Shown here piece after piece: positions 6,662 to 21,104 of a stretch of 64,000 nucleotides of DNA. This stretch comes from Paeniglutamicibacter psychrophenolicus (GTDB taxonomy: Bacteria > Actinomycetota > Actinomycetes > Actinomycetales > Micrococcaceae), in NCBI RefSeq assembly GCF_030812255.1, contig NZ_JAUSSH010000009.1, positions 1 through 64,000 of the forward strand. Direction: 5' to 3'. Numbering within the stretch: position 1 is the first letter of the stretch; each line of letters opens with the position of its first letter. A program made the translations under genes and the position numbers. The notes beneath the pieces were generated by a model. It made no database searches. It saw only the letters and a list, made by a program, of their open reading frames with translations, and was not told the origin of the DNA.

Positions 6662-7539
6662 GTGGCACGCCCGGAACCCCGCCCGCACTCAGCTCCCTTG
6701 GCGTTGGCAGGTTCGGCGGGCAAATTGATGCCCCTGCAGGCGCAGATCACCTCCAACGCGGCGGGTTTCCTGGGCGGCTACCTCGCCGCGGCGTTGCTCA
6801 GCGCCCTGACCTCCCTGGCCTGCCTGGCGGTGGCCTGCCTTGCGCTTCCCGGGACCCGGGCGGGCCGGCGGAAATTCGGTGCCGTGTGGCGCGAGCGCCC
6901 GATCCCGCGCTGGTTCCTGCTGGCCGGGCTGGTGGGGTCTTGCTGCATGGTGGCCCAGGCCATGAGCGTGGGCAGCATCGGTTTGGCACTCTTCGCCGTT
7001 GCCGTGGTCGGCGCCCGCACACTGACCAGCATCGTCATCGACGTGATCGGATTCAGCCCGGCCGGAAAGCAGCCCGTGACGCGCATCCGGATCCTCGGGG
7101 CGGCGCTGTTGGTGAGCTCCCAGCCATCGATGAACGGCCGCGCCGGACAGGCCCATGGGTCCACGACCACTGCCACGGCCATCAACCACCGGGCATCCAC
7201 CGCCGGGTTGCCCATCGCCATGGCCGTCTTGGCCTCGCTGAAGATCGAGTCGTCCGGGTTCTCCTCCGCGCCGCTGTGGTGGATGTACTTTGCCGGGCCG
7301 CTGGGCATCCTGTTCGTGGTCACCGGGGGCAGCCTGGTGCCGCGGCTTGGCGCCTGGTGCCGGGAATCGGGTTGGTCACCGGACAGCTGGTCGGATCGCT
7401 GGCGATGGATTTGATCCCGGCGCCGGAGAAGGCCGGCGAAAGTGAAATCATTGGAACATTGGCAACCCTGCTGGCGGTCCTGGTGGCTTCCTGGCAACCC
7501 AATGGCCAGCCACGATGGAAAGCACGAAATACACCATGA
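6662..7539 (+). pseudogene. Frameshifted, internally deleted DMT (YdcZ/DUF606) transporter
   Basis: The frame starts at GTG 6662 after AAGGAG. It encodes membrane segments that match the neighbouring intact DUF606 protein, for example LPGTRAG/LPGPRAG, SMNGRAGQAHG/AMNGVQAQAYG and WWMYFAGPLG/WWYYLGGPLG. Two lesions are visible. About 30 residues present in the paralogue between its GAILTIAG and AAMNGV segments are missing here. The frame also shifts near 7345-7360: the C-terminal segment GIGLVTGQLVGSLAMDL continues in another frame to a stop at 7539. That stop overlaps the start of the next gene as ATGA, showing the pair was once translationally coupled. Confidence 0.75.
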
Positions 7540-8522
7540 GCCCAACAACAGCCACCCGGACCAACCAGCGTTCGCTGATGCCCCTGTACCTGGCGACGGC
7601 GGTGTTTGCCGGGCTCGCGATGCCGATCCAGAGCCGCATCAACGGAGCCCTGGGCGCCAAGCTGGGGGACCCGGTCGCCGCCTCGCTGGTCAGCTTCACC
7701 ACCGGGCTCATCCTGTTGGTGATCGCCTCCCTGGTTCTGCCGGGGCCACGGGCCGGGGCACTGGCCATTCCGCGTGCCCTGCGGGAAAAGCGCTTCCCGC
7801 TCTGGTACCTGGCCGCCGGTTGCGTCGGCGCGTTCGTGGTTATTTCCCAGACGCTCACCGTGCCGCTGGTCGGTGTCGCCTTGTTCACGGTCTCCATCGT
7901 CACGGGCCAGACCCTGGGCTCCCTGCTGGTCGACAGCCTGGGCTTCGGACCCGGGGGCCGCCGGCGCATCAGCACCATCCGGGCGCTGGGTGCCATATTG
8001 ACCATTGCCGGGGTCGTCTGGGCGGTCAGCCCGCGGATGGGGTCGGCCGGGGCCATCGCCACGTTGCTGGTGCCCATGGCCGTTCCCCTGGCGGTGGGTT
8101 TCCTCATGGGTTTCCAGGCCGCCATGAACGGCGTGCAGGCGCAGGCCTACGGAACGCCGGTGGCAGCGACACTGGTGAACTTCGTGGTCGGCGGGATCCT
8201 GCTGGCCATCCTGTTGCTGGTGCGCCTGCCGATCACGGGCCCTGCGGCGGCACTGCCCGGGCAGTGGTGGTACTACCTCGGTGGCCCGCTGGGCTGCGTA
8301 TTCATCGGGCTTTCGGCGTTCCTGGTCAAGCACCTCGGGGTTCTCTTGACCGGGCTGGGAATGATCTGCGGGCAGCTTCTCGGTTCCCTGCTGATCGATG
8401 TGTTGGTGCCGGCCTCCGGCACCGTCATCGATGCCGCGACCATCGCCGGGACGCTGCTCACCCTGGCAGCGGTGTCGCTGGCCTCGATCCCCGGCAGCGC
8501 GTTCCGGCGCCTGCGGAAATAG
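7536..8522 (+). CDS. DMT-superfamily transporter, YdcZ/DUF606 type
   Basis: About 328 residues, with roughly ten hydrophobic segments arranged as two similar halves, typical of the DMT fold built from duplicated five-helix units. Each half has an equivalent loop (INGALGAKLGDPVAASLVSF and MNGVQAQAYGTPVAATLVNF). Substrate is unknown. The start chosen is ATG at 7536, which overlaps the end of the broken paralogue upstream. An ATG at 7515 would add seven residues. The adjacent degraded copy shows that only one of a former pair is kept. Confidence 0.85.
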   Translation: MSPTTATRTNQRSLMPLYLATAVFAGLAMPIQSRINGALGAKLGDPVAASLVSFTTGLILLVIASLVLPGPRAGALAIPRALREKRFPLWYLAAGCVGAFVVISQTLTVPLVGVALFTVSIVTGQTLGSLLVDSLGFGPGGRRRISTIRALGAILTIAGVVWAVSPRMGSAGAIATLLVPMAVPLAVGFLMGFQAAMNGVQAQAYGTPVAATLVNFVVGGILLAILLLVRLPITGPAAALPGQWWYYLGGPLGCVFIGLSAFLVKHLGVLLTGLGMICGQLLGSLLIDVLVPASGTVIDAATIAGTLLTLAAVSLASIPGSAFRRLRK

Positions 8523-9285: not shown

Positions 9286-12219
9286 TCAGTGCGGTCCCTC
9301 CGGGGAGGAATGTTCCGTGCCGTGGCGGGTTGCCAGGCGCGAGAGGTCAAGGCGGTTGGCGGTGCCGGTCTTGCGGAGCATGTTTGAGATGTGCGAGCTG
9401 ACGGTCTTTTCGCTGATGACCAGGGACCGGGCGATTTCCCCGTAGGTGCGCCCGGCCACGACGTAGCCGAGGATCTCCCGTTCGCGCACCGTCAGCCCCG
9501 GCAATTCAACGGCTCCGCCCGATGCCTGCCCGATGCCCGGCTGGTAGGTGGCGATCCTGGCGCGGGCGGCGATCTCCAGCAGCGAATCCTGGATCGGACG
9601 CGCATTCAGTTCCTGGGCCAGGACGAGCCCGCGGCGAAGGAACGTAGCGGCCTGCCCGTGGCCGGAGTGGCCGTGACGCAGCAGCGCCTGCACCGCCCGC
9701 CAGCAGCAATAGGCCTCCTCCCAGCGCAGGGAACCCGATTGGCAGGCATTGGCGGCGGCGATCCACTGCGCCGCGTTTCCGGCCTCCGAGCGGGCCCGCC
9801 CGGTCTCCGCCCGGTAGAGCGACTCGAAGGCTTCCACCTGCGCCGAGTAGTACGGGGTGTCGTTGCCCGATTCCCGCAACACGGAGGGGAATCGTGCCTC
9901 CAGCTCGTCGGTGGACGCCAGCATGCCGGCCGTGTCGGCGCCCTCGTCGCGGGCACCCTGGATCATGTCCGCCAGGGCGCGGGCTGCCAGCGGAACCAGC
10001 CACTCGCACATGGTCGGGGGCTGGCCCTCCTTGCCGGCCCCGGCCATGGCCGCGAGGTAGGCCGCCGCGGGGTTGCCCCCGGCCAGGAGGACCTCCGAGC
10101 GGACCGCGTCGAAGTCGAGGTTGTTGTACCCGGACTTGTGAGCAAACAGTTCCTCGGCCCTGGCCAGGTGCGCCCGGGCTTCGTCCTGGCTGCCCTGCAG
10201 GGCAGCCAGGCGGGCGGCCGTCAGGCGGGCGGCAACATCGCCCAACGGGCCCGGATCCGCACCCAGGGCCACACGCAGTGCCTGCCCGCATTCGCGCCAG
10301 CGTCCGATCGAAAGGTAGCTGCTGGCCTCGTCGGCGGCCATCTTCGACAGGTACACGTGCGGGGCGCCGAGCAGCGCCAGCTGCTGCCTGCCCGAGCGCA
10401 TCAGGTCGGCAAACACCTGGCTGGTCCAGGCCTCGGTCGCGTTGGCCTGCCAGGTCGTGGCGTGGAGCAGGGCCCAGAAATCCCGGGCCCGCGCGGCCGC
10501 CCTGGCCCCCTGGGCGGCCAGCAGGCGTGCCTCGCCGGGACGTTCCCCGAGCAGCGCGGCCATGGAATTGGCCGTCAGGGCGTAGGACAGGGCCTGCGGG
10601 TTTCCCGCCTCCCGGGCCACCTCCAGCGCCTGCGCTGCCTGCCTCGGTGCATCGGGATCGTCCTTCCACAGGCGCATATGGGCGAGCTCGGCCAAGGCAT
10701 AGGCATATTGCCAGCTCTCGGGGGAGACCTGCGCCAACCGGACAGCCTGCAGCAAGGCCTCGGCCGAGAGGAATTCGAGCCCCGAGGAAAAACGAAGCAA
10801 GGCACGGCGCACCATCAACTCGGCGACGTCCAGTGACCGCTTGGCGGGGTCCAGCTCCGCCAACAGGGCCTCCAACGCACCGAGTTCATCCTCCATGGCC
10901 CCGGACGCCTCGGCAGCGGTGCGCAACCGATGCAATAGTTCCTCGCGGCTTTCATCGACCTGCGGCAGCTGTCCGTGCAGGGCCAGCGCCCGATGCAGCA
11001 GGCGAAGGATCTCGTTTGACCCGCCGGCCGAGCCCGCGGCCGCGGCGGCCCGCAGTGTCCAGCGGTATGCCTCGCCGGCGTTCCCGGCATCGTAGTGGTG
11101 TTGGGCCAGGGCCGCCATGAATTCGAAGTCCGGGGTGGTTCCCTGGGCCAGCAGCCGCGCCCCGTAGGCGGCGAACAGCGCGTGCCAGTCCCGGCGCTGC
11201 CCGCTTTCCAGTCCCTGTTCCAGGACCTCGGAGATCAACGGATGGTGGAACCACCAATGCGTCCCGTCCGGCCAGCACTCCGTGATCCCGGCCTCCGTCG
11301 TTTCCCGCAGGATGGCCGCGGCGTCGTGCCGGGTCCCGGCCTGCTGCGACAGGCCGGCCAGGTCCTGGGCGCGGATGGGCCGCCCGCCCACGGCCATGAG
11401 CTGGGTCAGCTGCCGCGCGCCAACGGACATGCCGCGCCAGGACCGCAGCACGGCCGACTTGAGGTCCTCGGGCAGCGTCGGGGGCAGATGGCGTGTCTCG
11501 GGGCGCAGGCCGCTGACCATGAGCCGGTTGAGATAGGCGTTGCCGGCGGTGTGTGAAAAGACCTCCTGCACCAGCGACTGGTGCGGCGCGGAACCCATGG
11601 CCTGGGCAATCTGGGCCCCGGTCGAGGTGCGGTCCAACGGCTCCAATGCCACCCAAGAGATCCGCGGCATGCGCCGGATGTCGGCCAGCCAGCGCTGCAG
11701 CGGGTGCAGTTCCCCCAGCTCGCCGCTGCGCAGCGTGGCGAGGATCGCCAGGCGCCGGTCCGCGGGCCCGGCGATGAGGTACATCAGCGCATCCAGGGTG
11801 CCCTGGTCCGCCCACTGCAGGTCATCGACGACCAAGACCACCGGCCGTACCAGGCAGAGCTCGGTCAACCAGTCATCGATTGCGACAACCACGTCGTTGG
11901 CCGCCCAGCCTCCCGGACCGAGACCGGGGTTCGGGATCCCCTCGAGAACCGGGCCACGCCGGAGGGCCGAGCGCAGCGGCAGGAACGGGACGGTCATCGA
12001 GGCCAGCGGCAGCGCGGCCCCGGCCAGGATCCACATCCCGGAGGAGACCGCCGCGCAGGCGTGCTGCACGAGAGCGGTTTTCCCGACACCGGGATCCCCG
12101 GAAACCACCAGGGTGCAGGCCGCACCGGATATCGCCGCATCCAAGGACGCGCCGATGTCGTCGAGCTCCGTCGCCCTCCCCATGAGTTCCGGGCCCATCA
12201 CCCCAAGCTCCAGTGCCAC
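9286..12219 (-). CDS. LuxR-family LAL (MalT-like) regulator A with AAA ATPase
   Basis: 977-residue signal-transduction ATPase of the STAND/LAL class. An N-terminal NTPase has Walker A GDPGVGKT at residues 41-48 and Walker B VVLVVDDLQWAD. A long helical, TPR-like middle region follows, and the C terminus carries a LuxR helix-turn-helix (LTVREREILGYVVAGRTYGE, SEKTVSSHISNMLRKTG). Such proteins act as ligand-gated transcription activators. The ligand here is unknown. The start is GTG at 12219. It is divergent from a small secreted peptide gene across 147 bases and is paralogous to the regulator at 12733-15663. Confidence 0.9.
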   Translation of the reverse strand: MALELGVMGPELMGRATELDDIGASLDAAISGAACTLVVSGDPGVGKTALVQHACAAVSSGMWILAGAALPLASMTVPFLPLRSALRRGPVLEGIPNPGLGPGGWAANDVVVAIDDWLTELCLVRPVVLVVDDLQWADQGTLDALMYLIAGPADRRLAILATLRSGELGELHPLQRWLADIRRMPRISWVALEPLDRTSTGAQIAQAMGSAPHQSLVQEVFSHTAGNAYLNRLMVSGLRPETRHLPPTLPEDLKSAVLRSWRGMSVGARQLTQLMAVGGRPIRAQDLAGLSQQAGTRHDAAAILRETTEAGITECWPDGTHWWFHHPLISEVLEQGLESGQRRDWHALFAAYGARLLAQGTTPDFEFMAALAQHHYDAGNAGEAYRWTLRAAAAAGSAGGSNEILRLLHRALALHGQLPQVDESREELLHRLRTAAEASGAMEDELGALEALLAELDPAKRSLDVAELMVRRALLRFSSGLEFLSAEALLQAVRLAQVSPESWQYAYALAELAHMRLWKDDPDAPRQAAQALEVAREAGNPQALSYALTANSMAALLGERPGEARLLAAQGARAAARARDFWALLHATTWQANATEAWTSQVFADLMRSGRQQLALLGAPHVYLSKMAADEASSYLSIGRWRECGQALRVALGADPGPLGDVAARLTAARLAALQGSQDEARAHLARAEELFAHKSGYNNLDFDAVRSEVLLAGGNPAAAYLAAMAGAGKEGQPPTMCEWLVPLAARALADMIQGARDEGADTAGMLASTDELEARFPSVLRESGNDTPYYSAQVEAFESLYRAETGRARSEAGNAAQWIAAANACQSGSLRWEEAYCCWRAVQALLRHGHSGHGQAATFLRRGLVLAQELNARPIQDSLLEIAARARIATYQPGIGQASGGAVELPGLTVREREILGYVVAGRTYGEIARSLVISEKTVSSHISNMLRKTGTANRLDLSRLATRHGTEHSSPEGPH

Positions 12220-12257
12220 AAAACCAGTTTCCCACCATCGGGCCCCGAGGGAGCCGT

Positions 12258-12338
12258 AATCTCAGGGTTTTGGCCGGTTTTTTAAGGGGCCGTTCCCGAT
12301 GCCCCCGAGTGGGTCCAGCGAGCAAGGTTGAGGTATCG
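12258..12338. promoter_or_regulatory. Conserved intergenic blocks between regulator A and peptide A
   Basis: Three blocks, AATCTCAGG (12258-12266), TCCCGATGC (12294-12302) and GTTGAGGTATCG (12327-12338), recur in the same order at 15710-15789 between regulator B and peptide B. The gap between the first two is 27 bases in both copies, and between the second and third it is 24 and 23. The last block ends 28 bases before the peptide ATG. The spacing suggests operator plus promoter elements of the peptide gene, possibly bound by the LAL proteins. This role is inferred. Confidence 0.6.
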
Positions 12339-12366
12339 GAATCACTGCAAACGAAAGGCAAGTCCC

Positions 12367-12621
12367 ATGTATTCCGCACGCAAGACAACACGGTTCGCCG
12401 GCCTGGTCTTCGCCTCGCTGGCAGTGGCCCTCGCTGCTTCCTCCCCGGCCTATGCCCGGCTGGATCCCGGAGGACCAATCGTCGATGAACAAACCACGGT
12501 CAGCACCGTCACCACCGACACCTCGGCGTGTTCGCTGACACGGATCGGAACGCAACTGGTCCACTGCGACAGCCTGACCGGGGCCGGCGTCGAGGCCCCG
12601 TCCTGGGTCCCCGAGCGTTAG
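12367..12621 (+). CDS. Small secreted two-cysteine peptide A
   Basis: 84 residues. Positively charged N terminus (RKTTR), hydrophobic core FAGLVFASLAVALAA, and a signal-peptidase-like site SPAYA ending at residue 30. The mature part is about 54 residues with two cysteines, C55 and C67 (C-x11-C). Peptide B at 15817 has FAGL at residues 10-13, cleavage after residue 30, DPG at 33-35 and a C-x11-C pair, all equivalent. I recognise no described family. It is divergent from regulator A and is followed at once by a UUCG-loop terminator, so it forms a single-gene transcript. Confidence 0.75.
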   Translation: MYSARKTTRFAGLVFASLAVALAASSPAYARLDPGGPIVDEQTTVSTVTTDTSACSLTRIGTQLVHCDSLTGAGVEAPSWVPER

Positions 12622-12635
12622 GCATCAACGACACC

Positions 12636-12671
12636 GGCTTGCCGGCCGGGCTTCGGCCCGGCCGGCAAGCC
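12636..12671 (+). terminator. Hairpin terminator after peptide A
   Basis: A 16-bp perfect stem (12636-12651 with 12656-12671) is closed by a TTCG tetraloop, 14 bases after the peptide A stop. No strong T-run follows. The convergent regulator B gene ends about 60 bases further on. Confidence 0.75.
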
Positions 12672-12732
12672 CATGCCTGGTCCCGGACCCGAGGATGGCC
12701 ACCCGGAAGGCGTCGCCTGTGGTCAGGTCAGG

Positions 12733-15663
12733 TCAGGGCTGGCCGGGGCGCGCTGTCGGTTCATCGCGCTGGCGGCTGGCCAATCGGGATAGATCCAGGC
12801 GGTTCGCGGTGGCTGTTTTGCGCAACATGTTTGAGACGTGCGTGCTGACGGTCTTCTCGCTGATGACCAAGTTCCGGGCAATCTCCGCATAAGTCAGGCC
12901 GGAGACGACATGGCCAAGGATCTCCCGTTCGCGCTCGGTGAGACCGGGCAATTCGACCACGCCGGCGGCAGTGGCCCCCGGGGCCGGGCGGAGTATGGCG
13001 ATTCGGGCTTGGGCGGCAATTTGCTTCAGCGATGCCTGGATCGGACGAGCCTGGAGTTCCTCGGCAAGTTCGAGGCCGCGGTGAAGGATCTCGGTGGCCG
13101 GACCGCGTTGTGTGTTGGCGTGCAACAGCAGGGCTTCCACGGCCCGCCAGCAGCAATAGGCCTCTTCCCAGCGGAGGGTTGCATCCCGGCATTCATCCGC
13201 GGCCGCCACCCATTGTCGACCGTTCTCGGAGGAGGAGCGTGCACGGCCGACCTCGGCCCGAAAAAGCCCATTGAGGGCTTGCATCTGCGTTTTGAACAGC
13301 TCGGTGTCGAATTCGTCCTGAAGCACGCGGGGAAAAAGTTCCAACAGATCGTCGATGAGCGCGAGCAGATCTGCGGTGGGGTTTCCCTCGTCGCGTGCGC
13401 GTTGGATGCGATCTGCCAGCGAACGGGCAGCCAGCGGAACGCTTGCTTCAGTCATGTACTCGGCAGGGAGCTCGGCTTTGGCGTAGCGCATGATGGTCGT
13501 GTAGGCAGCCTCGGGGTTTCCGGCAGCCAGATAGACCTCGGCACGGATGTCGTCGAATTTATTATTCATGAACTTGGACGCTTGCGCGGATATTTCCTCG
13601 GCGCGGGCAAGATGTGCCTCGGCCTCACTTTGTTTGCCCTGCCGGACCGCCAGCTGGGCGGCCGTCAATCGAGCCAAGACATCACCCATGGCGCCGGGGT
13701 CCGAACCAAGAGCCACTCGAAGCGCCACGGCGCAATCCTTCCAACGACCGATGGCCAAGTAGGAGCCTGCCTCAAAACCGGCCAGCGTGGCGATATAAAC
13801 ATGCGGCGATCCCATGCTGGCCATGATGCCCCTCCCGGCGCGCATGAAATCGGCGTAGGTTTGGCTGGCAAATGATTCCGTGAGGTTCGCCTGCCACATG
13901 ATGGCACCAAACAGCGCCCAGAAATCTCGCGTCCGTTTCGCTGCTTCGACCCCCAGCGCCGCCGCTTCGCGACCTCGGGTCAAATTTCCGCTATTGAGAG
14001 AGGCCATGGCATTGGCATAACAGGCATAGGTCAAGGCCCGTGGGTTACCCGCACGCCGGGCAGCGCGCAAGGCCTCCGATGCATGGACTTGCCCGTCGGG
14101 CTTCTCTACCCATAGTTCAGCAACCGCGAGTTCGGAAAGCGCCAAGGCGTATTGCCAACTCTGTCTATTCGCACTCGCAAGCTGCACTGCGCGGCGCATC
14201 CGGCTGATTGAAAGAAACTCCCGTCCGGTGCTAAACCTCAGTTGGGCTTCCCGCACCATCAGTTCGGAGGCCTCAAGCGGTCGATCAACGGCGTTGATCT
14301 CCGAAATCAGGGCCTCCACCGCTTCCAATTCATCTTCCATGGCACCGGCATCTGCGGCGGCGGCACGCATCCTGTTGAGCAGCCCTTCACGTTCCTCCGT
14401 CTCATAGCCAAGAATGTCATGCAACTCCAGTGCGCGGCGAAGCAACAGCAACATTTCACCAGTCCCGCTGGCCCCGTTGGTCGCGGTGGCAGCACGCAAC
14501 GTCCATCGGTAGGCCTCGGCGAAGTTTCCGGCAGCATCATGGTGGTGTGCCAGTGCCGCCAATGACTCGAAATGAGCGGTAGCCCCCTCGCCGAGCCGCC
14601 TTTCCTCGTGGGCGGCGAAAACCGCGTGCCAACGGCGCCGTTTCTGCTCATCAAGCCTCTGCTCAAGGACTTCGGCGATGAGCGGATGGTGGAACCACCA
14701 AAGTGCCCCGTCAGCGTCGCATTCAGCGATACCTGCCGCCGCCGCCTCACGCAAGATAGCCAGGGCATCACACCGGAACGCGGATTGCTGCACCAATTCG
14801 TCCAGGGCCGCTGCCCGCAGGGGGCGACCACCAACGGCCATCAGCTCGGTGAGTTCACGCGCCTCCGCAGTTAGGCTGTGCCAAGACCGCAGGACCGCTG
14901 TCCGCAGGTCCGCCGGCAGCCGCGCTGGCAAATGTCGGGTGTCGGCTCGCAGCCCGCTGACGATGAGCCGGTTCAGGTAGGGGTTCCCGGCGGTGTGTGA
15001 AAAAACGTCCCCGATCAGCGACTGGTGCGGCTCCGTGCCCAGCACCTGGGCCAGTTGGGCCCCCGTCGCCCGATAGTCCAGTGGCCCCAGCTCCAGCCAG
15101 AAGACGCGGGGCATGCGCCGGATGTCCGCCAGCCAGCGCTGCAGCGGATGTCCTTCGCCAACTTCGCCGTTGCGTAGGGTGGCGAGGATGCACAAGGGCC
15201 TGTCACCAGGCCCCGCTATGAGATACATCAGGGCGTCGAGGGTGCTCGAGTCGGCCCAGTGCAGGTCATCAATCACGAGCACCACGGGCCTGGCTCGGCT
15301 GATCTCCGTCAGCCAGTTGTCGATGGCCACCATGGAATCATCGGATGCCTGGCCGCTGGTTCCGAACACGGGTTTGGGGATCCCCTCCAACGGGGGAGCA
15401 CCATTGACGGCGGTGCGCAGGGGCAGAAAAGGGAAGCTGACCGAAGCCAAGGGCAGGCACCCGCCGGTGAGGATTAGCGCCGTGGAATCCACGTTCACAC
15501 AGGCCTGATTGACCAGTGCCGTTTTCCCGACACCGGCGTCCCCGGAAACCACCAAAGTGACCGCAGTGTGGATGAGCCCGCTTTGCATGGTGTCGCCAAT
15601 CTGACCTAGCTCCATAGTGCGTCCGACGAGATCCGGGCCGCTCCATTCACGATCGTGGGCCAT
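12733..15663 (-). CDS. LuxR-family LAL (MalT-like) regulator B with AAA ATPase
   Basis: 976 residues from ATG 15663. The frame is open to 15705, but this start puts GP at residues 9-10 and Walker A GDAGVGKT at 41-48, exactly as in regulator A. Walker B is VVLVIDDLHWAD. A long helical sensor region and a C-terminal LuxR helix-turn-helix (LTEREREILGHVVSGLTYAE, SEKTVSTHVSNMLRKTA) follow. Colinear with regulator A over its whole length. Base composition is less GC-rich than in A in the middle of the gene, so the copies may have separate histories. Divergent from the peptide B-lipoprotein operon. Ligand unknown. Confidence 0.88.
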   Translation of the reverse strand: MAHDREWSGPDLVGRTMELGQIGDTMQSGLIHTAVTLVVSGDAGVGKTALVNQACVNVDSTALILTGGCLPLASVSFPFLPLRTAVNGAPPLEGIPKPVFGTSGQASDDSMVAIDNWLTEISRARPVVLVIDDLHWADSSTLDALMYLIAGPGDRPLCILATLRNGEVGEGHPLQRWLADIRRMPRVFWLELGPLDYRATGAQLAQVLGTEPHQSLIGDVFSHTAGNPYLNRLIVSGLRADTRHLPARLPADLRTAVLRSWHSLTAEARELTELMAVGGRPLRAAALDELVQQSAFRCDALAILREAAAAGIAECDADGALWWFHHPLIAEVLEQRLDEQKRRRWHAVFAAHEERRLGEGATAHFESLAALAHHHDAAGNFAEAYRWTLRAATATNGASGTGEMLLLLRRALELHDILGYETEEREGLLNRMRAAAADAGAMEDELEAVEALISEINAVDRPLEASELMVREAQLRFSTGREFLSISRMRRAVQLASANRQSWQYALALSELAVAELWVEKPDGQVHASEALRAARRAGNPRALTYACYANAMASLNSGNLTRGREAAALGVEAAKRTRDFWALFGAIMWQANLTESFASQTYADFMRAGRGIMASMGSPHVYIATLAGFEAGSYLAIGRWKDCAVALRVALGSDPGAMGDVLARLTAAQLAVRQGKQSEAEAHLARAEEISAQASKFMNNKFDDIRAEVYLAAGNPEAAYTTIMRYAKAELPAEYMTEASVPLAARSLADRIQRARDEGNPTADLLALIDDLLELFPRVLQDEFDTELFKTQMQALNGLFRAEVGRARSSSENGRQWVAAADECRDATLRWEEAYCCWRAVEALLLHANTQRGPATEILHRGLELAEELQARPIQASLKQIAAQARIAILRPAPGATAAGVVELPGLTEREREILGHVVSGLTYAEIARNLVISEKTVSTHVSNMLRKTATANRLDLSRLASRQRDEPTARPGQP

Positions 15664-15709
15664 GCAATCCAGTCTCGCACCTTGCTCCTCCATAGGCGAG
15701 AGCACCCGG

Positions 15710-15789
15710 AATCTCAGGTATTTGCGTGGCCTTCTGGGTGGTCACTCCCGATGCAGGGACACGGTGTCGAGAGCAGTGTTGAAGTATCG
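15710..15789. promoter_or_regulatory. Conserved intergenic blocks between regulator B and peptide B
   Basis: AATCTCAGG (15710-15718), TCCCGATGC (15746-15754) and GTTGAAGTATCG (15778-15789) repeat the order and spacing seen at 12258-12338. The last block ends 27 bases before the peptide B ATG. The bases between the blocks are mostly not conserved, which points to selected sites rather than recent duplication. Binding by the LAL regulators is inferred. Confidence 0.6.
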
Positions 15790-15816
15790 AATTCAGGAAA
15801 TATGGAAGGTGGCATC

Positions 15817-16119
15817 ATGTTTTTCCCACACAAGGCGTCGGGGTTCGCCGGCTTGGCCGCCAGCACACTGTTTTTGGCGGGGCTGGGCCCTCTATCCGCG
15901 ATGGCAACGGAAGATCCGGGACCGACAGTGCCGACGATCCAAGAGACAACCAGTTACTTTTGCGTGTTGCCGGGGGTTGAGGGGCAAGTGGTTCGTTGTG
16001 TCTGTCCCGCCGGTGACGGGGCCGGTACTCCGCCGTGGCTGCGTAAGCCTGAACAGGGCCCGGCCCAATTCCCGGTCCTTCCGGGCCAGGGTGGAAAGAC
16101 CCTGGTGTCCCGGATATGA
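15817..16119 (+). CDS. Small secreted cysteine-containing peptide B
   Basis: 100 residues with a signal-peptide-like start: His-Lys near the N terminus, FAGLAASTLFLAGLGPL, and a site SAMA at residues 27-30. The mature segment carries DPG at 33-35 and C49-x11-C61, matching peptide A in position, plus a third cysteine at 63. The tail is Pro/Gly-rich and longer than that of A. The stop overlaps the ATG of the next gene as ATGA, so the peptide is translationally coupled to the downstream lipoprotein. No known family is recognised. Confidence 0.7.
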   Translation: MFFPHKASGFAGLAASTLFLAGLGPLSAMATEDPGPTVPTIQETTSYFCVLPGVEGQVVRCVCPAGDGAGTPPWLRKPEQGPAQFPVLPGQGGKTLVSRI

Positions 16120-16913
16120 CTCGGTCCCTTGGGCGGGAGTCTGCCGGGTGGCGGCGTCCGAGCCCGGTGTACATTGCGTGCGGTTCCGTGGGCACACTGC
16201 TTTGCGGCGAACCGCGTGAACCCCCTGCCACTGTGCCATCCCACACAATTGACTCACCGTTTGTGGACCGGCCCGATCTGCCGCCGACCACGACACGTTT
16301 CTTCCCCTTGGACAAGAAGCACTGGGCGCTTGATCTCATGGTCGCCATCACAGTTGTCTCGAGCATTTCGGGGTGCACCGCGGTGGTCAATGACGTGGAT
16401 GTGGCCACCACCGAGCTGTCGTCCCGCCACGCGCCCCGGCCATCCGTTGCCCTGCTTCCGCCGGCCGTCGCCACCCCCACCATGTCGGCTGCGCCGGACC
16501 CACAACAGGCATCGCGCAGCATCGAGGAGTTGCTGCGCTCCGGCGAACACCCGCTGGCTGGTGCCGTCCCGGGTTCCGAGCAGGTTCTGCTCAGTGTCGA
16601 GCGAAGCCGCGGCTTCTCCTTCGCCCTCCCTGCCCGGGCCAGGGGCGTGTACCTGTGGATCGCTGTGCGCTGCAGGCGTCCGGTTCCGCTGTCGCTGCTG
16701 GCCTTCGACGCCGCCGGCCGCACCACGCTCATGTACACGCCGGACAACTGCCCGGCGACCGACCTGGTGGCCGGGCCGCTGGACACCACGGAAACCAGGG
16801 GCATCCTCACCATCCCGAACGGCTCTCCGATGCATTTCACGCTGGTCTCCGGCCAGCTCGCGAACGCCGATGACCGGGCAGGCACCCGCTGGCCGCGAAA
16901 ATTCCTTCGGTGA
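16116..16913 (+). CDS. Predicted lipoprotein 1 (paralogue of next gene)
   Basis: The 265-codon frame overlaps peptide B by 4 bases. A hydrophobic segment beginning at WALDLMVAITVV ends in a lipobox SISGC near residue 87, so the mature protein is probably membrane-anchored outside the cell. The first ~75 residues are not signal-like, and a downstream start such as the GTG near 16211 is possible. The exported domain shares with the next gene PL-GA-PGSE-VL, an LPA motif, LWI-type strand and C-x25-C. No domain family is recognised. The cysteine pair suggests a disulfide. Confidence 0.65.
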   Translation: MTRSLGRESAGWRRPSPVYIACGSVGTLLCGEPREPPATVPSHTIDSPFVDRPDLPPTTTRFFPLDKKHWALDLMVAITVVSSISGCTAVVNDVDVATTELSSRHAPRPSVALLPPAVATPTMSAAPDPQQASRSIEELLRSGEHPLAGAVPGSEQVLLSVERSRGFSFALPARARGVYLWIAVRCRRPVPLSLLAFDAAGRTTLMYTPDNCPATDLVAGPLDTTETRGILTIPNGSPMHFTLVSGQLANADDRAGTRWPRKFLR

Positions 16914-16922
16914 GGAACGGAC

Positions 16923-17540
16923 ATGAAGGATCACACCCACGAGTCCGGCCCGGCGCGGCGTTCCCGCCCCGGACCGCATCCCTTCCTTGCCCTGGCGGCC
17001 CGGCTGTGCTTGGTGTGCCTGGCCACCGGGTGCACCCCGCTCAACGTAGAGCCCCCGCCCCCTGACGAGCCCGGTCCACCGGTTACCGGGCCGTCCTTCA
17101 TTCCCGAAACCCAGGTCTTCCCCGTGGCCCCTTCCCCGAACGAACCCGGCGTGGGCACCAGGCGCCCGACCCATGCCGAGCTCATTGCCCAAGGCAAGAG
17201 CCCGTTGCCCGGTGCACTGCCCGGCAGCGAAAAGGTCCTGATGCACTTCCACGGCAAGGGCGAAGCCAGGATCGTGCTGCCGGCCCAACGATCCGGCGCG
17301 CTGCTGTGGATCCTGGCCGGCTGCCGGAGCGAGGCGCCGTTGACCATCCGGTCGCTGAACCTCTACGGCGTCGTGGTTGCCCGCTACGATTTGGAGCCTT
17401 GCCGTGCCGCCGAGGGCGGTGGGGGGACCGAGGACGGCACTTCCACACTGGTGGAGATCTGGACCAGTCCAGACGTGGAGTACGACCTGAGTGTCATTTC
17501 CTCGGAGCCACGCACCGGCAGGGGCATGCCCGAGCGATGA
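16923..17540 (+). CDS. Predicted lipoprotein 2 (paralogue of preceding gene)
   Basis: 205 residues with a basic N terminus, hydrophobic stretch FLALAARLCLVCLATGC and lipobox LATGC, so probably a surface lipoprotein. A Pro-rich linker (about residues 42-75) precedes a domain with SPLPGALPGSEKVL, IVLPAQRSGALLWI and C-x25-C. These are the same blocks in the same order as lipoprotein 1. It starts 9 bases after the upstream stop, in one operon with peptide B and lipoprotein 1. Function is unknown. Sensing, binding or display of the secreted peptide is only a hypothesis from context. Confidence 0.7.
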   Translation: MKDHTHESGPARRSRPGPHPFLALAARLCLVCLATGCTPLNVEPPPPDEPGPPVTGPSFIPETQVFPVAPSPNEPGVGTRRPTHAELIAQGKSPLPGALPGSEKVLMHFHGKGEARIVLPAQRSGALLWILAGCRSEAPLTIRSLNLYGVVVARYDLEPCRAAEGGGGTEDGTSTLVEIWTSPDVEYDLSVISSEPRTGRGMPER

Positions 17541-18278: not shown

Positions 18279-19105
18279 TCGTCGAGGACACGGTCCTGCG
18301 GGAGGGGGCCGACACAGTCCCCTCTAACCATTTCTCGCCCGACCTCAGCAGGACACGGCGGTTCGCCCGCTGGGTCGCGTGGAACATCGACGGCGGCAGC
18401 ATCAAGAAGCTCAGCCGCTCGGGCATGAATTTCACCAAGGATCCCCGGCTTCCCGAGGCCGCACAGACGGGCAACGAGCTCTACGCCGGCAACCGCCTGG
18501 ACCGCTGACACATCGCCCGCCGTGCCAATTTGCTCTGGGGCCGGCTGCCCGAGGCGAACCAGGCCAACTGGGACTCGTTCCGCTACACCAACACCACCCC
18601 GCAAATGGACGACTTCAACCAAAGCAGCCGGGACGGGCTCTGTGGACGACTCGAGGTTGCACTCCACGAGGACATCGACGTCAATGGCCTGCGCGTCAGC
18701 GTCTTCGGCGGGCCTGTCTTCCACGGGGATGACCGCATCCACCGCGGCACCGCGCTGCGCCGTGAATACTGGACGCTCGTGGCCTTCACCGATCGCGGCA
18801 CCCCGAAGGCACGCGTCTTCCTGCCCACCCAGGACCTCGTCCAGCTTCGGGAGCTCCCGGACCTGAACGAGTTCCTGGTCTACCAGGCCACCCTGGCCGA
18901 ACTCGAGGCACGCACGCGGAATCACTTCCCCGGCGCCCTGCACACCGCGGGCATCCCGGCCACCCGGGCCCCTGGGGAGAGGAAGCCCCAGGAAACGGCC
19001 GCCGGCTTCCGCTGGCAGGCCCGCCTGGACCACGGCCGTGCCGTCAGCGGCTTCGTGGCAGCATGGGTCGCGGGTCCGGGTATCCAGTCGGAGGTCGGCT
19101 GTTGA
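18242..19105 (+). pseudogene. DNA/RNA non-specific endonuclease (NUC) pseudogene
   Basis: In one frame from about 18242 the translation contains NHFSPDLSRTRRFARWVAWN and IDGG, then LYAGNRLDR, a TGA stop (18506-18508), HIARRANLLWG, and then YTNTTPQMDDFNQSSRDGL and a C-terminal part to 19105. This is the beta-beta-alpha metal nuclease family, whose catalytic signature is DRGH. Here the Gly codon position is TGA, giving DR-stop-H. The N terminus is missing and replaced by transposase debris. The gene is therefore truncated and interrupted at its active site, although the rest of the frame is well preserved. Confidence 0.75.
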
Positions 19106-19718: not shown

Positions 19719-21104
19719 ATGGCGCCTCAGTCCAAGCTCGATCAAGTCATCTCCCTCGCCAAACGGCGCGGCTTCGTCTTCCAGGCCGGTGAAATCTACG
19801 GTGGCTCCCGCTCGGCATGGGACTACGGACCCCTGGGCACCGAGCTCAAGGAAAACATCAAGCGCGAATGGTGGCAGACCTTTGTCCGCGGACGCGAGGA
19901 CATGGTGGGACTGGATTCCTCCATCATCCTGCCCAAGGCCGTCTGGGAGGCCTCCGGCCACGTTGAGACATTCACCGACCCGCTGGTCGAGTGCACCTCC
20001 TGCCACAAGCGCCACCGCGCGGACCACCTCCTCGAGGCCTTTGAGGCCAAGAAGAAGCGCAAGCCGGTCGACGGCATGAGCGAAATCGCCTGCCCCGACT
20101 GCGGCACCAAGGGCCAGTTCACCGAACCGCAGATGTTCTCCGGGCTGATGAAGACCTTCCTGGGCCCGGTCGACACGGCCGCCGGCATGGCCTACATGCG
20201 CCCGGAAACCGCCCAGGGCATCTTCGTGAACTTCAACAACGTGCTCACCGCGTCCCGCAAGAAGCCGCCGTTCGGCATCGGCCAGATCGGCAAGGCCTTC
20301 CGCAACGAGATCACGCCGGGCAACTTCATCTTCCGCACCCGCGAGTTCGAGCAGATGGAAATCGAGTTCTTCACCGCACCCGAGGATGCCCCGGCCTTCT
20401 TCGACAAGTGGGTCGAGGACTGCTGGGCCTGGTTCCTGGATCTGGGCATCAACGAGGAAAACCTGCGCCGCTTCGACGTCCCGGACGGCGAGCGTGCCCA
20501 CTACTCCGAGGCCACCATCGACTTCGAGTACCGCTTCGGCTTCCAGGGTTCGGAGTGGGGTGAGCTCATGGGCGTCGCCAACCGCACCGACTACGACCTG
20601 TCCAGCCACTCCAAGGCCTCGGGCACCGAGCTGTCCTACTTCAACCAGGCCACCGGCGAGCGTTTCACCCCGTACGTGATTGAGCCTTCCTTCGGCCTTA
20701 CCCGTTCGATGATGGCCTTCCTGGTCGACGCCTACGTCGAGGACGAGGCCCCGAACGCCAAGGGCGGGGTGGACAAGCGCACCGTGCTCAAGCTCGACCC
20801 GCGACTGGCCCCGGTCAAGGCCGCGGTGCTGCCGCTCTCGCGCAACGAGGACCTGTCCCCGAAGGCCAAGGCACTGGCCGCCGAGCTGCGGAAGTCCTGG
20901 AACATCGACTTCGACGATGCCGGCGCCATCGGCCGCCGCTACCGCCGCCAGGACGAGATCGGCACGCCGTTCTGCATCACCGTGGACTTCGACACCCTCG
21001 AGGACCAGGCCGTGACCATCCGCGACCGCGACACCATGACCCAGGAACGCGTGGCACTGGACAAGGTGCGCACCTACCTGTCCGAGCGCCTCAACGGAGC
21101 CTAG
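19719..21104 (+). CDS. glyS: Glycyl-tRNA synthetase
   Basis: 461-residue single-chain (dimeric type) class II glycyl-tRNA synthetase. Visible: the N-terminal [14 protein letters not shown] and [11 protein letters not shown], class II motif 2 around [19 protein letters not shown], motif 3 near [13 protein letters not shown], and a C-terminal anticodon-binding domain starting about residue 365 ([17 protein letters not shown]). Two CxxC pairs ([12 protein letters not shown] and CPDCGTKG, residues ~92-130) could bind zinc. The enzyme charges tRNA-Gly. It stands 4 bases upstream of a GNAT gene. No T-box-like leader is visible. Confidence 0.95.

What the first reader, a model, noticed from the sequence alone, without database searches (positions are those of the whole stretch)
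9286..17540. Duplicated LAL regulator / secreted cysteine-peptide module with a lipoprotein pair: possible new extracellular signalling or stress system
Seen: two giant LuxR-type ATPase regulators of equal length and identical domain register lie in tandem on the minus strand. Each is divergent from a small secreted peptide. The peptides share FAGL at residues 10-13, predicted cleavage after residue 30, DPG at 33-35 and C-x11-C. The second peptide is translationally coupled to two lipoproteins that are themselves paralogues. Known: LAL/MalT proteins are ligand-gated activators. Inferred: each regulator controls its divergent peptide, and the lipoproteins bind or display the peptide or its target. 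I know of no described system with this composition.
Basis: partly seen in the sequence, partly recalled or inferred. Interest (0 to 1): 0.8.

Follow-up and report, generated by a model that had tools for sequence, protein, structure and literature searches.

The report
Regulator switching one small exported protein
Two neighbouring giant regulator genes in this soil bacterium each sit back to back with a gene for a tiny exported protein, and the pair with its built-in DNA switch recurs across related bacteria, so it looks like an undescribed one-regulator, one-exported-protein system whose trigger and job are still unknown.

Summary
The core of the finding is real and general. Two LAL regulators (977 aa, and 976-990 aa; 59% identical) each lie about 100-150 bp from a divergent small exported protein (84 and 100 aa; C-x11-C). 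In 395 Micrococcaceae genomes, 24 carry this LAL subfamily: 21 genomes hold 27 intact regulator-peptide pairs, two have pairs decayed or truncated, one has a diverged peptide. The pair occurs in at least six genomic neighbourhoods and in other Micrococcales families. The peptide core (C-PLxRIGxQLVRCDxLTGxGxxAPxWIPE) is under purifying selection.

I found the probable switch: tandem TCTSAGGG repeats, 21-22 bp apart, followed by CCSGATG, about 105 nt before the peptide start. It marks nearly all LAL-linked peptides, none of eight orphan peptides, and in distant LALs (31-50% identity; Knoellia, Kribbella, Nocardioides) it stands before other, unrelated small exported proteins.

The lipoproteins are not part of the system: a separate cassette with its own conserved upstream DNA, present at the LAL locus in 3 of 21 genomes and also beside desferrioxamine genes. 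"Translational coupling" is probably an ORF artefact.

Best reading: a MalT-like, ligand-gated local activator of one small exported effector. Ligand and effector function are unknown. Quorum sensing is possible but not favoured.

The parts
9286..12219 (-). LAL1: STAND-type ATPase (Walker A GDPGVGKT, Walker B VLVVDDLQWAD), helical TPR-like sensor, C-terminal LuxR/GerE HTH
   Evidence: Pfam AAA_16 5.2e-18, GerE 1.6e-15; AlphaFold pLDDT 86.6; MalT chain 8bob_C Z 22.6 over residues 2-422 and MalT domain III 1hz4 Z 21.3 over 537-894
12260..12301 (+). Operator 1: TCTCAGGG (12260) and TTTAAGGG (12281), 21 bp apart, then CCGATG (12296)
   Evidence: Phylogenetic footprint; only strict match in the own genome
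12367..12621 (+). pep1: 84-aa exported peptide, cleavage expected after A-Y-A (residue 30), core CSLTRIGTQLVHCDSLTGAGVEAPSWVPER
   Evidence: Conserved family and purifying selection on the core; no Pfam or NCBIfam match
12733..15705 (-). LAL2: paralogue of LAL1 (59%); likely true start 15663
   Evidence: exists as two divergent alleles in close relatives
15712..15753 (+). Operator 2: TCTCAGGT (15712) and the degenerate TCTGGGTG (15733), then CCGATG (15748)
15817..16119 (+). pep2: 100-aa exported peptide, C-x11-C plus an extra Cys, C-terminal extension
16308..16913 (+). lip1: lipoprotein (ISGC lipobox), likely TTG start at 16308; judged NOT part of the LAL-peptide module
   Evidence: shared block with the desferrioxamine locus begins about 16190
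16923..17540 (+). lip2: lipoprotein paralogue of lip1; judged NOT part of the module

Best explanation
Each half is a self-contained, one-target regulatory module. The LAL is a MalT-like STAND switch: with ATP and an unknown inducer bound to its helical sensor it is expected to oligomerise, bind the tandem TCTSAGGG repeats (21-22 bp, two helical turns) plus CCSGATG in the shared intergenic region, and activate transcription of the adjacent small gene. The product goes out through Sec; signal peptidase leaves about 50 residues, in which one disulfide closes a short hairpin and a fixed C-terminal tail follows. I think this is an exported effector acting on the cell envelope or on neighbouring cells, not mainly a signal for the LAL. 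In the window the module is duplicated. Shown by sequence: the pair, the linkage, the operator motif, selection on the peptide, co-decay, the predicted MalT-like fold. Inferred: ligand gating, activation rather than repression, DNA binding at this operator, disulfide formation, effector role.
For: Linkage: of 24 genomes (395 sampled) with this LAL subfamily, 21 have an intact divergent peptide (27 pairs); G068 and G270 have decayed or truncated pairs; G267 keeps the operator before a diverged exported ORF. The pair sits in at least six different neighbourhoods with no other constant partner. Operator: strict tandem repeat in 24 of 27 linked peptides (the other three have weaker copies at the same spacing, by eye), 0 of 8 orphans, 34 of 5664 control windows, 32 of 5400 shuffles. 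The composite motif hit 24 distinct places in 2.0 Mb, all LAL loci, including LALs at 31-50% identity, and 0 of 138 genomes drawn across the class. In Knoellia, Kribbella and Nocardioides it precedes other small exported proteins. Local regulon: the strict motif occurs once in the own genome, at pep1; in 27 LAL-bearing genomes 8 of 9 exact hits are at the LAL locus. Peptide: core dN/dS 0.09-0.26 in most pairs. Co-decay in G253 and G068. MalT-like fold over NTPase and sensor. MalT and the LAL TpdR also use direct repeats (PMC6099782). Effector reading: orphan peptides with intact cores persist without LAL, and the Kribbella/Nocardioides products end in a hydrophobic stretch plus a basic tail.
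Against: No binding, expression or secretion data. Ligand unknown. Operator sites come from related loci and are not independent. The Actinoplanes LAL L099 has an operator-like site before a 215-aa gene without an obvious signal peptide, so the target need not be exported. Several LALs of 30-44% identity show no such site. The peptide model is poor (pLDDT 48.8). Signal peptides were judged by eye, without SignalP. Orphans lacking the LAL could respond to another receptor.
Confidence: 0.62

Rival explanations
1. Autoinducing peptide system: the secreted peptide, or a C-terminal fragment of it, re-enters and is sensed by the LAL's TPR-like superhelix, as in RRNPP quorum sensing with Rap/Rgg-type receptors.
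For: Adjacent regulator and small exported peptide, single local target, TPR-like sensor; Rap-pheromone chains appear among structural matches (Z 15-16); conserved C-terminal tail W-[IV]-P-E; paired duplication; co-decay.
Against: Orphan peptides kept under selection without the LAL; pep2 lacks the conserved tail and LAL2 alleles are swapped while pep2 hardly changes; related LALs drive unrelated exported proteins predicted to be membrane-anchored; Z near 16 is little above what helical repeats give by chance; peptide distances track the HTH as well as the sensor.
Confidence: 0.18
2. Antagonism or defence module: the peptide is a bacteriocin-like or inhibitory protein and the LAL senses competitors or envelope damage.
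For: Patchy distribution, multiple copies, variable products behind one switch, a fast-changing regulator allele. A specific form of the best explanation.
Against: No dedicated immunity gene next to the peptide in most loci; no match in Pfam, NCBIfam or PDB by sequence.
Confidence: 0.3
3. One reading: LAL, peptide and lipoprotein pair work together, lipoproteins binding or displaying the peptide.
For: Adjacency in the window, G003 and G007.
Against: Absent from the LAL locus in the other 18 genomes with an intact pair; lipoprotein family present without LAL or peptide in several genomes; cassette shared with the desferrioxamine locus.
Confidence: 0.04

Closest known systems
MalT and LAL regulators (Escherichia coli MalT; Rhodococcus jostii TpdR; Streptomyces SCO0877/SCO7173)
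   Same: N-terminal STAND ATPase, helical sensor, C-terminal LuxR HTH, fold match to MalT, direct-repeat operator (PMC6099782)
   Different: Known LALs switch catabolic operons or antibiotic clusters; this one appears dedicated to one adjacent small exported protein; it scores far below the MalT equivalog cut-off (27.6 against 537 bits); operator sequence differs from TpdR's
RRNPP quorum-sensing systems (Rap/Phr, Rgg/SHP, PlcR/PapR)
   Same: Regulator gene next to a small Sec-exported peptide gene; TPR-like sensor
   Different: Regulator about 977 aa with STAND ATPase and LuxR HTH, not 250-500 aa; mature product about 50 residues with a likely disulfide; other phylum; no evidence of peptide import or binding
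STAND proteins with TPR sensors (PDB 6mfv, Apaf-1)
   Same: NTPase plus winged-helix plus helical sensor
   Different: Carries a DNA-binding HTH and a cognate operator

Membership tests
[quoted passage not shown]
   977 aa; GDPGVGKT; AAA_16 5.2e-18; definition from PMC3282765
[quoted passage not shown]
   GerE 1.6e-15 at residues 909-963
MalT orthologue | Above the NCBIfam PRK04841 (MalT) curated cut-off | tested here: not met
   23.1 and 27.6 bits against 537, HTH only
STAND/MalT-type fold | MalT-like NTPase-winged-helix and helical domain III | tested here: met
   8bob_C Z 22.6, rmsd 5.3, 375 aligned; 1hz4 Z 21.3, rmsd 4.3, 328 aligned
STAND/MalT-type mechanism | Inducer- and ATP-dependent oligomerisation and promoter activation | not testable with these tools
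   Needs biochemistry
RRNPP quorum sensing (criteria of PMC10075063) | Propeptide 10-100 aa | tested here: met
   84 and 100 aa
RRNPP quorum sensing (criteria of PMC10075063) | Propeptide exported by Sec | tested here: inconclusive
   Basic start, hydrophobic core and A-x-A site judged by eye; no SignalP available
RRNPP quorum sensing (criteria of PMC10075063) | Receptor 250-500 aa | tested here: not met
   977 and 976-990 aa
RRNPP quorum sensing (criteria of PMC10075063) | Receptor with peptide-binding TPRs | tested here: inconclusive
   TPR-like superhelix in the model; no Pfam TPR hit; peptide binding untested
RRNPP quorum sensing (criteria of PMC10075063) | Receptor and propeptide genes adjacent | tested here: met
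   27 divergent pairs

The most novel reading that the evidence does not exclude
A widespread actinobacterial system in which a MalT-like STAND receptor, through one conserved tandem operator, switches a single small exported protein of interchangeable sequence, and in which that protein is sensed by its own receptor: a peptide communication or self/non-self system in Actinomycetota built on LuxR-type LALs.
Probability: 0.15. Interest if true: 0.88.

Novelty: new variant of a known kind. Interest (0 to 1): 0.62.

Why it matters
LALs are numerous in actinobacteria and very few have a known target or ligand. Here a whole subfamily gets a predicted target, a predicted operator and a one-gene regulon that can be tested with one reporter. 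The operator also gives a handle to find unannotated small exported proteins, as it did in Knoellia, Kribbella and Nocardioides. The peptide family had no match in Pfam, NCBIfam or PDB.

Tried and rejected
Lipoproteins as partners: rejected on distribution and cassette structure. Phage or plasmid origin: no peptide match in either collection. Peptide fold: AlphaFold pLDDT 48.8 with only a weak hairpin hint, not searched further. PDB by peptide profile: only chance-level hits. Peptide-sensor coevolution: correlation no better than with the HTH, uninformative. A shared neighbour of orphan peptides: only an 821-aa/228-aa pair in 3 of 9 loci. Operator in the lipoprotein locus L052: none. Class-wide scan with the strict composite pattern: 0 of 138 sampled genomes; useful as a specificity control, but it added no new loci. 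Literature searches found no described system of this composition in the held open-access library; subscription papers are not covered.

Full report
What is there. Two LAL genes lie in tandem on the minus strand, 9286-12219 and 12733-15705. They are 59% identical over the full length, with AAA_16 and GerE domains in the same register. LAL2 is called at 990 aa, but relatives suggest the Met at 15663 as its start (an in-frame stop lies just upstream in G007), which gives 976 aa. The DNA between regulator and peptide is also recognisably duplicated.

Conservation of the pair. A profile of twelve peptides finds the family in 35 of 395 Micrococcaceae genomes; four of those hits are weak and probably spurious. 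A profile of the LAL finds its subfamily in 24 of the same 395. In 21 of the 24 the peptide is divergent and close, 27 pairs in all. G270 keeps only a LAL fragment. In G068 the LAL is frameshifted and the peptide core deleted. In G267 the LAL and operator are intact but the exported ORF has diverged. G253 has both partners broken: LAL pieces, and a stop right after the signal peptide. The pair sits in at least six unrelated neighbourhoods with no other constant neighbour. It also occurs in two other families of the order, with LALs of 31-50% identity. Named examples include Arthrobacter sp. C2, Arthrobacter sp. AQ5-05, A. wenxiniae and A. terrae.

The peptide. The shared core is C-[PS]-L-x-R-I-G-x-Q-L-V-R-C-D-x-L-T-G-x-G-x-x-A-P-x-W-[IV]-P-E, ending within a few residues in most members. 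Core dN/dS is 0.09-0.26 in most pairs and lower than in the leader and linker. One closely related pair (L181/L191) has too few changes to judge. Both cysteines are lost together in G201, as expected if they pair. pep2 and its orthologues keep C-x11-C but add a cysteine and a tail. Pfam and NCBIfam give nothing and PDB only chance-level hits. The structure model is not reliable.

The switch. Aligning the intergenic regions shows two direct repeats TCTSAGGG, 21 bp apart (20-22), followed by CCSGATG, with the first repeat about 105 nt before the peptide start codon. With a fixed rule the repeat pair is found in 24 of 27 linked peptides; the other three have weaker copies at the same spacing, seen by eye. 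It is absent from 8 of 8 orphan peptides, and found in 34 of 5664 control windows and 32 of 5400 shuffles. The composite motif was found at 24 distinct places in 2.0 Mb of fetched sequence, all beside LAL genes. A strict form was found in none of 138 genomes drawn across the class. In the own genome the tandem motif with at most one mismatch occurs at pep1 (exact) and at one other place at chance level. In 27 LAL-bearing genomes eight of nine exact hits are at the LAL locus. These sites share ancestry, so the counts are not independent; the persistence across LALs of 31-95% identity is the stronger argument.

The switch finds other small exported proteins. In Kribbella steppae, K. antiqua and Nocardioides donggukensis (LAL 32-35%) the motif stands downstream of the LAL gene, and 105-115 nt after it begins a gene of 85-124 codons with a signal peptide, a C-terminal hydrophobic stretch and a basic tail, unrelated in sequence to pep1. 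K. rubisoli and Knoellia aerolata show the same arrangement by eye with a weaker first repeat; the Knoellia product has no C-terminal hydrophobic stretch. The exception is an Actinoplanes LAL (39%) with an operator-like site before a 215-aa gene without an obvious signal peptide. So the constant part is regulator plus operator; the product varies but is nearly always a small exported protein.

The regulator's fold. The LAL1 model (pLDDT 86.6) matches the MalT NTPase module (8bob_C, Z 22.6, rmsd 5.3, 375 aligned) and MalT domain III (1hz4, Z 21.3, rmsd 4.3, 328 aligned), and STAND proteins generally. That supports MalT-like gating by analogy. It does not identify a ligand. Rap-pheromone structures appear at Z 15-16, little above what helical repeats can give by chance.

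Lipoproteins. lip1 and lip2 are paralogues with lipoboxes, but the family is scattered: several genomes have members without LAL or peptide, G004 has the LAL-peptide modules but its lipoprotein pair elsewhere, and the own genome has a second cluster beside what read as desferrioxamine-type biosynthesis genes (gene names there are from my reading of the sequences). The two loci share a block starting about 120 nt before the likely lip1 start (16308), inside the stretch that the long ORF from 16116 treats as coding. I therefore reject translational coupling to pep2 and membership in the module.

Mechanism and rivals. I favour a ligand-gated local activator of one exported effector (0.62 for the whole statement; about 0.85 for the regulator-operator-peptide relation alone). 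The effector reading rests on orphan peptides kept without the LAL and on the predicted membrane-anchored products in Kribbella and Nocardioides. An autoinducing peptide system is the main rival (0.18). It fails the receptor-length criterion of the RRNPP definition (PMC10075063), but it could still work in a similar way. An antagonism role is a specific form of the effector reading and cannot be separated here.

Novelty. LALs are a known kind, and MalT and TpdR also use direct repeats (PMC6099782). I found no description of a LAL dedicated to one small exported protein, of this operator, or of this peptide family in the papers available. I rate it a new variant of a known kind.

Noticed in passing
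12900-15800: LAL2 exists as two allele classes among four close relatives (window and G004 against G003 and G007, about 70% DNA identity) while LAL1 and pep2 are about 85-95% identical: the regulator alone appears to have been replaced.
   Followed up: partly
L052 (G000:C15:64000-83500): A cluster of at least six related lipoproteins flanks genes that read as a desferrioxamine-type siderophore pathway; the lip1-lip2 pair of the window is related to part of it.
   Followed up: partly
L051 / L093 (Arthrobacter sp. H14-L1): Next to the decayed LAL-peptide pair lies an M4 metallopeptidase C-terminal part followed by an emfourin (PF20242), a protease-inhibitor pair.
   Followed up: no
L185, L186, L187: Three orphan peptide loci lie near an 821-aa membrane protein, with a 228-aa partner in full or in part; no Pfam match to the stretch tested from L185.
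   Followed up: no
L099 near 4935 (Actinoplanes sp. M2I2): Operator-like tandem repeat plus CCCGATGTGC before a 215-aa gene without an obvious signal peptide, divergent from a 39% LAL.
   Followed up: partly
L209 (G037:C1 about 295.2 kb): A second locus with a peptide-like signal sequence but no core, next to a weak LAL-like ATPase match.
   Followed up: no
6662-8522: Two adjacent DMT_YdcZ transporter genes, possibly a tandem duplication.
   Followed up: no
18530-19105: A DNA/RNA non-specific endonuclease domain (PF01223) ORF beginning at a TTG, possibly a fragment, upstream of a glycyl-tRNA synthetase-like ORF at 19719 (synthetase by reading).
   Followed up: no
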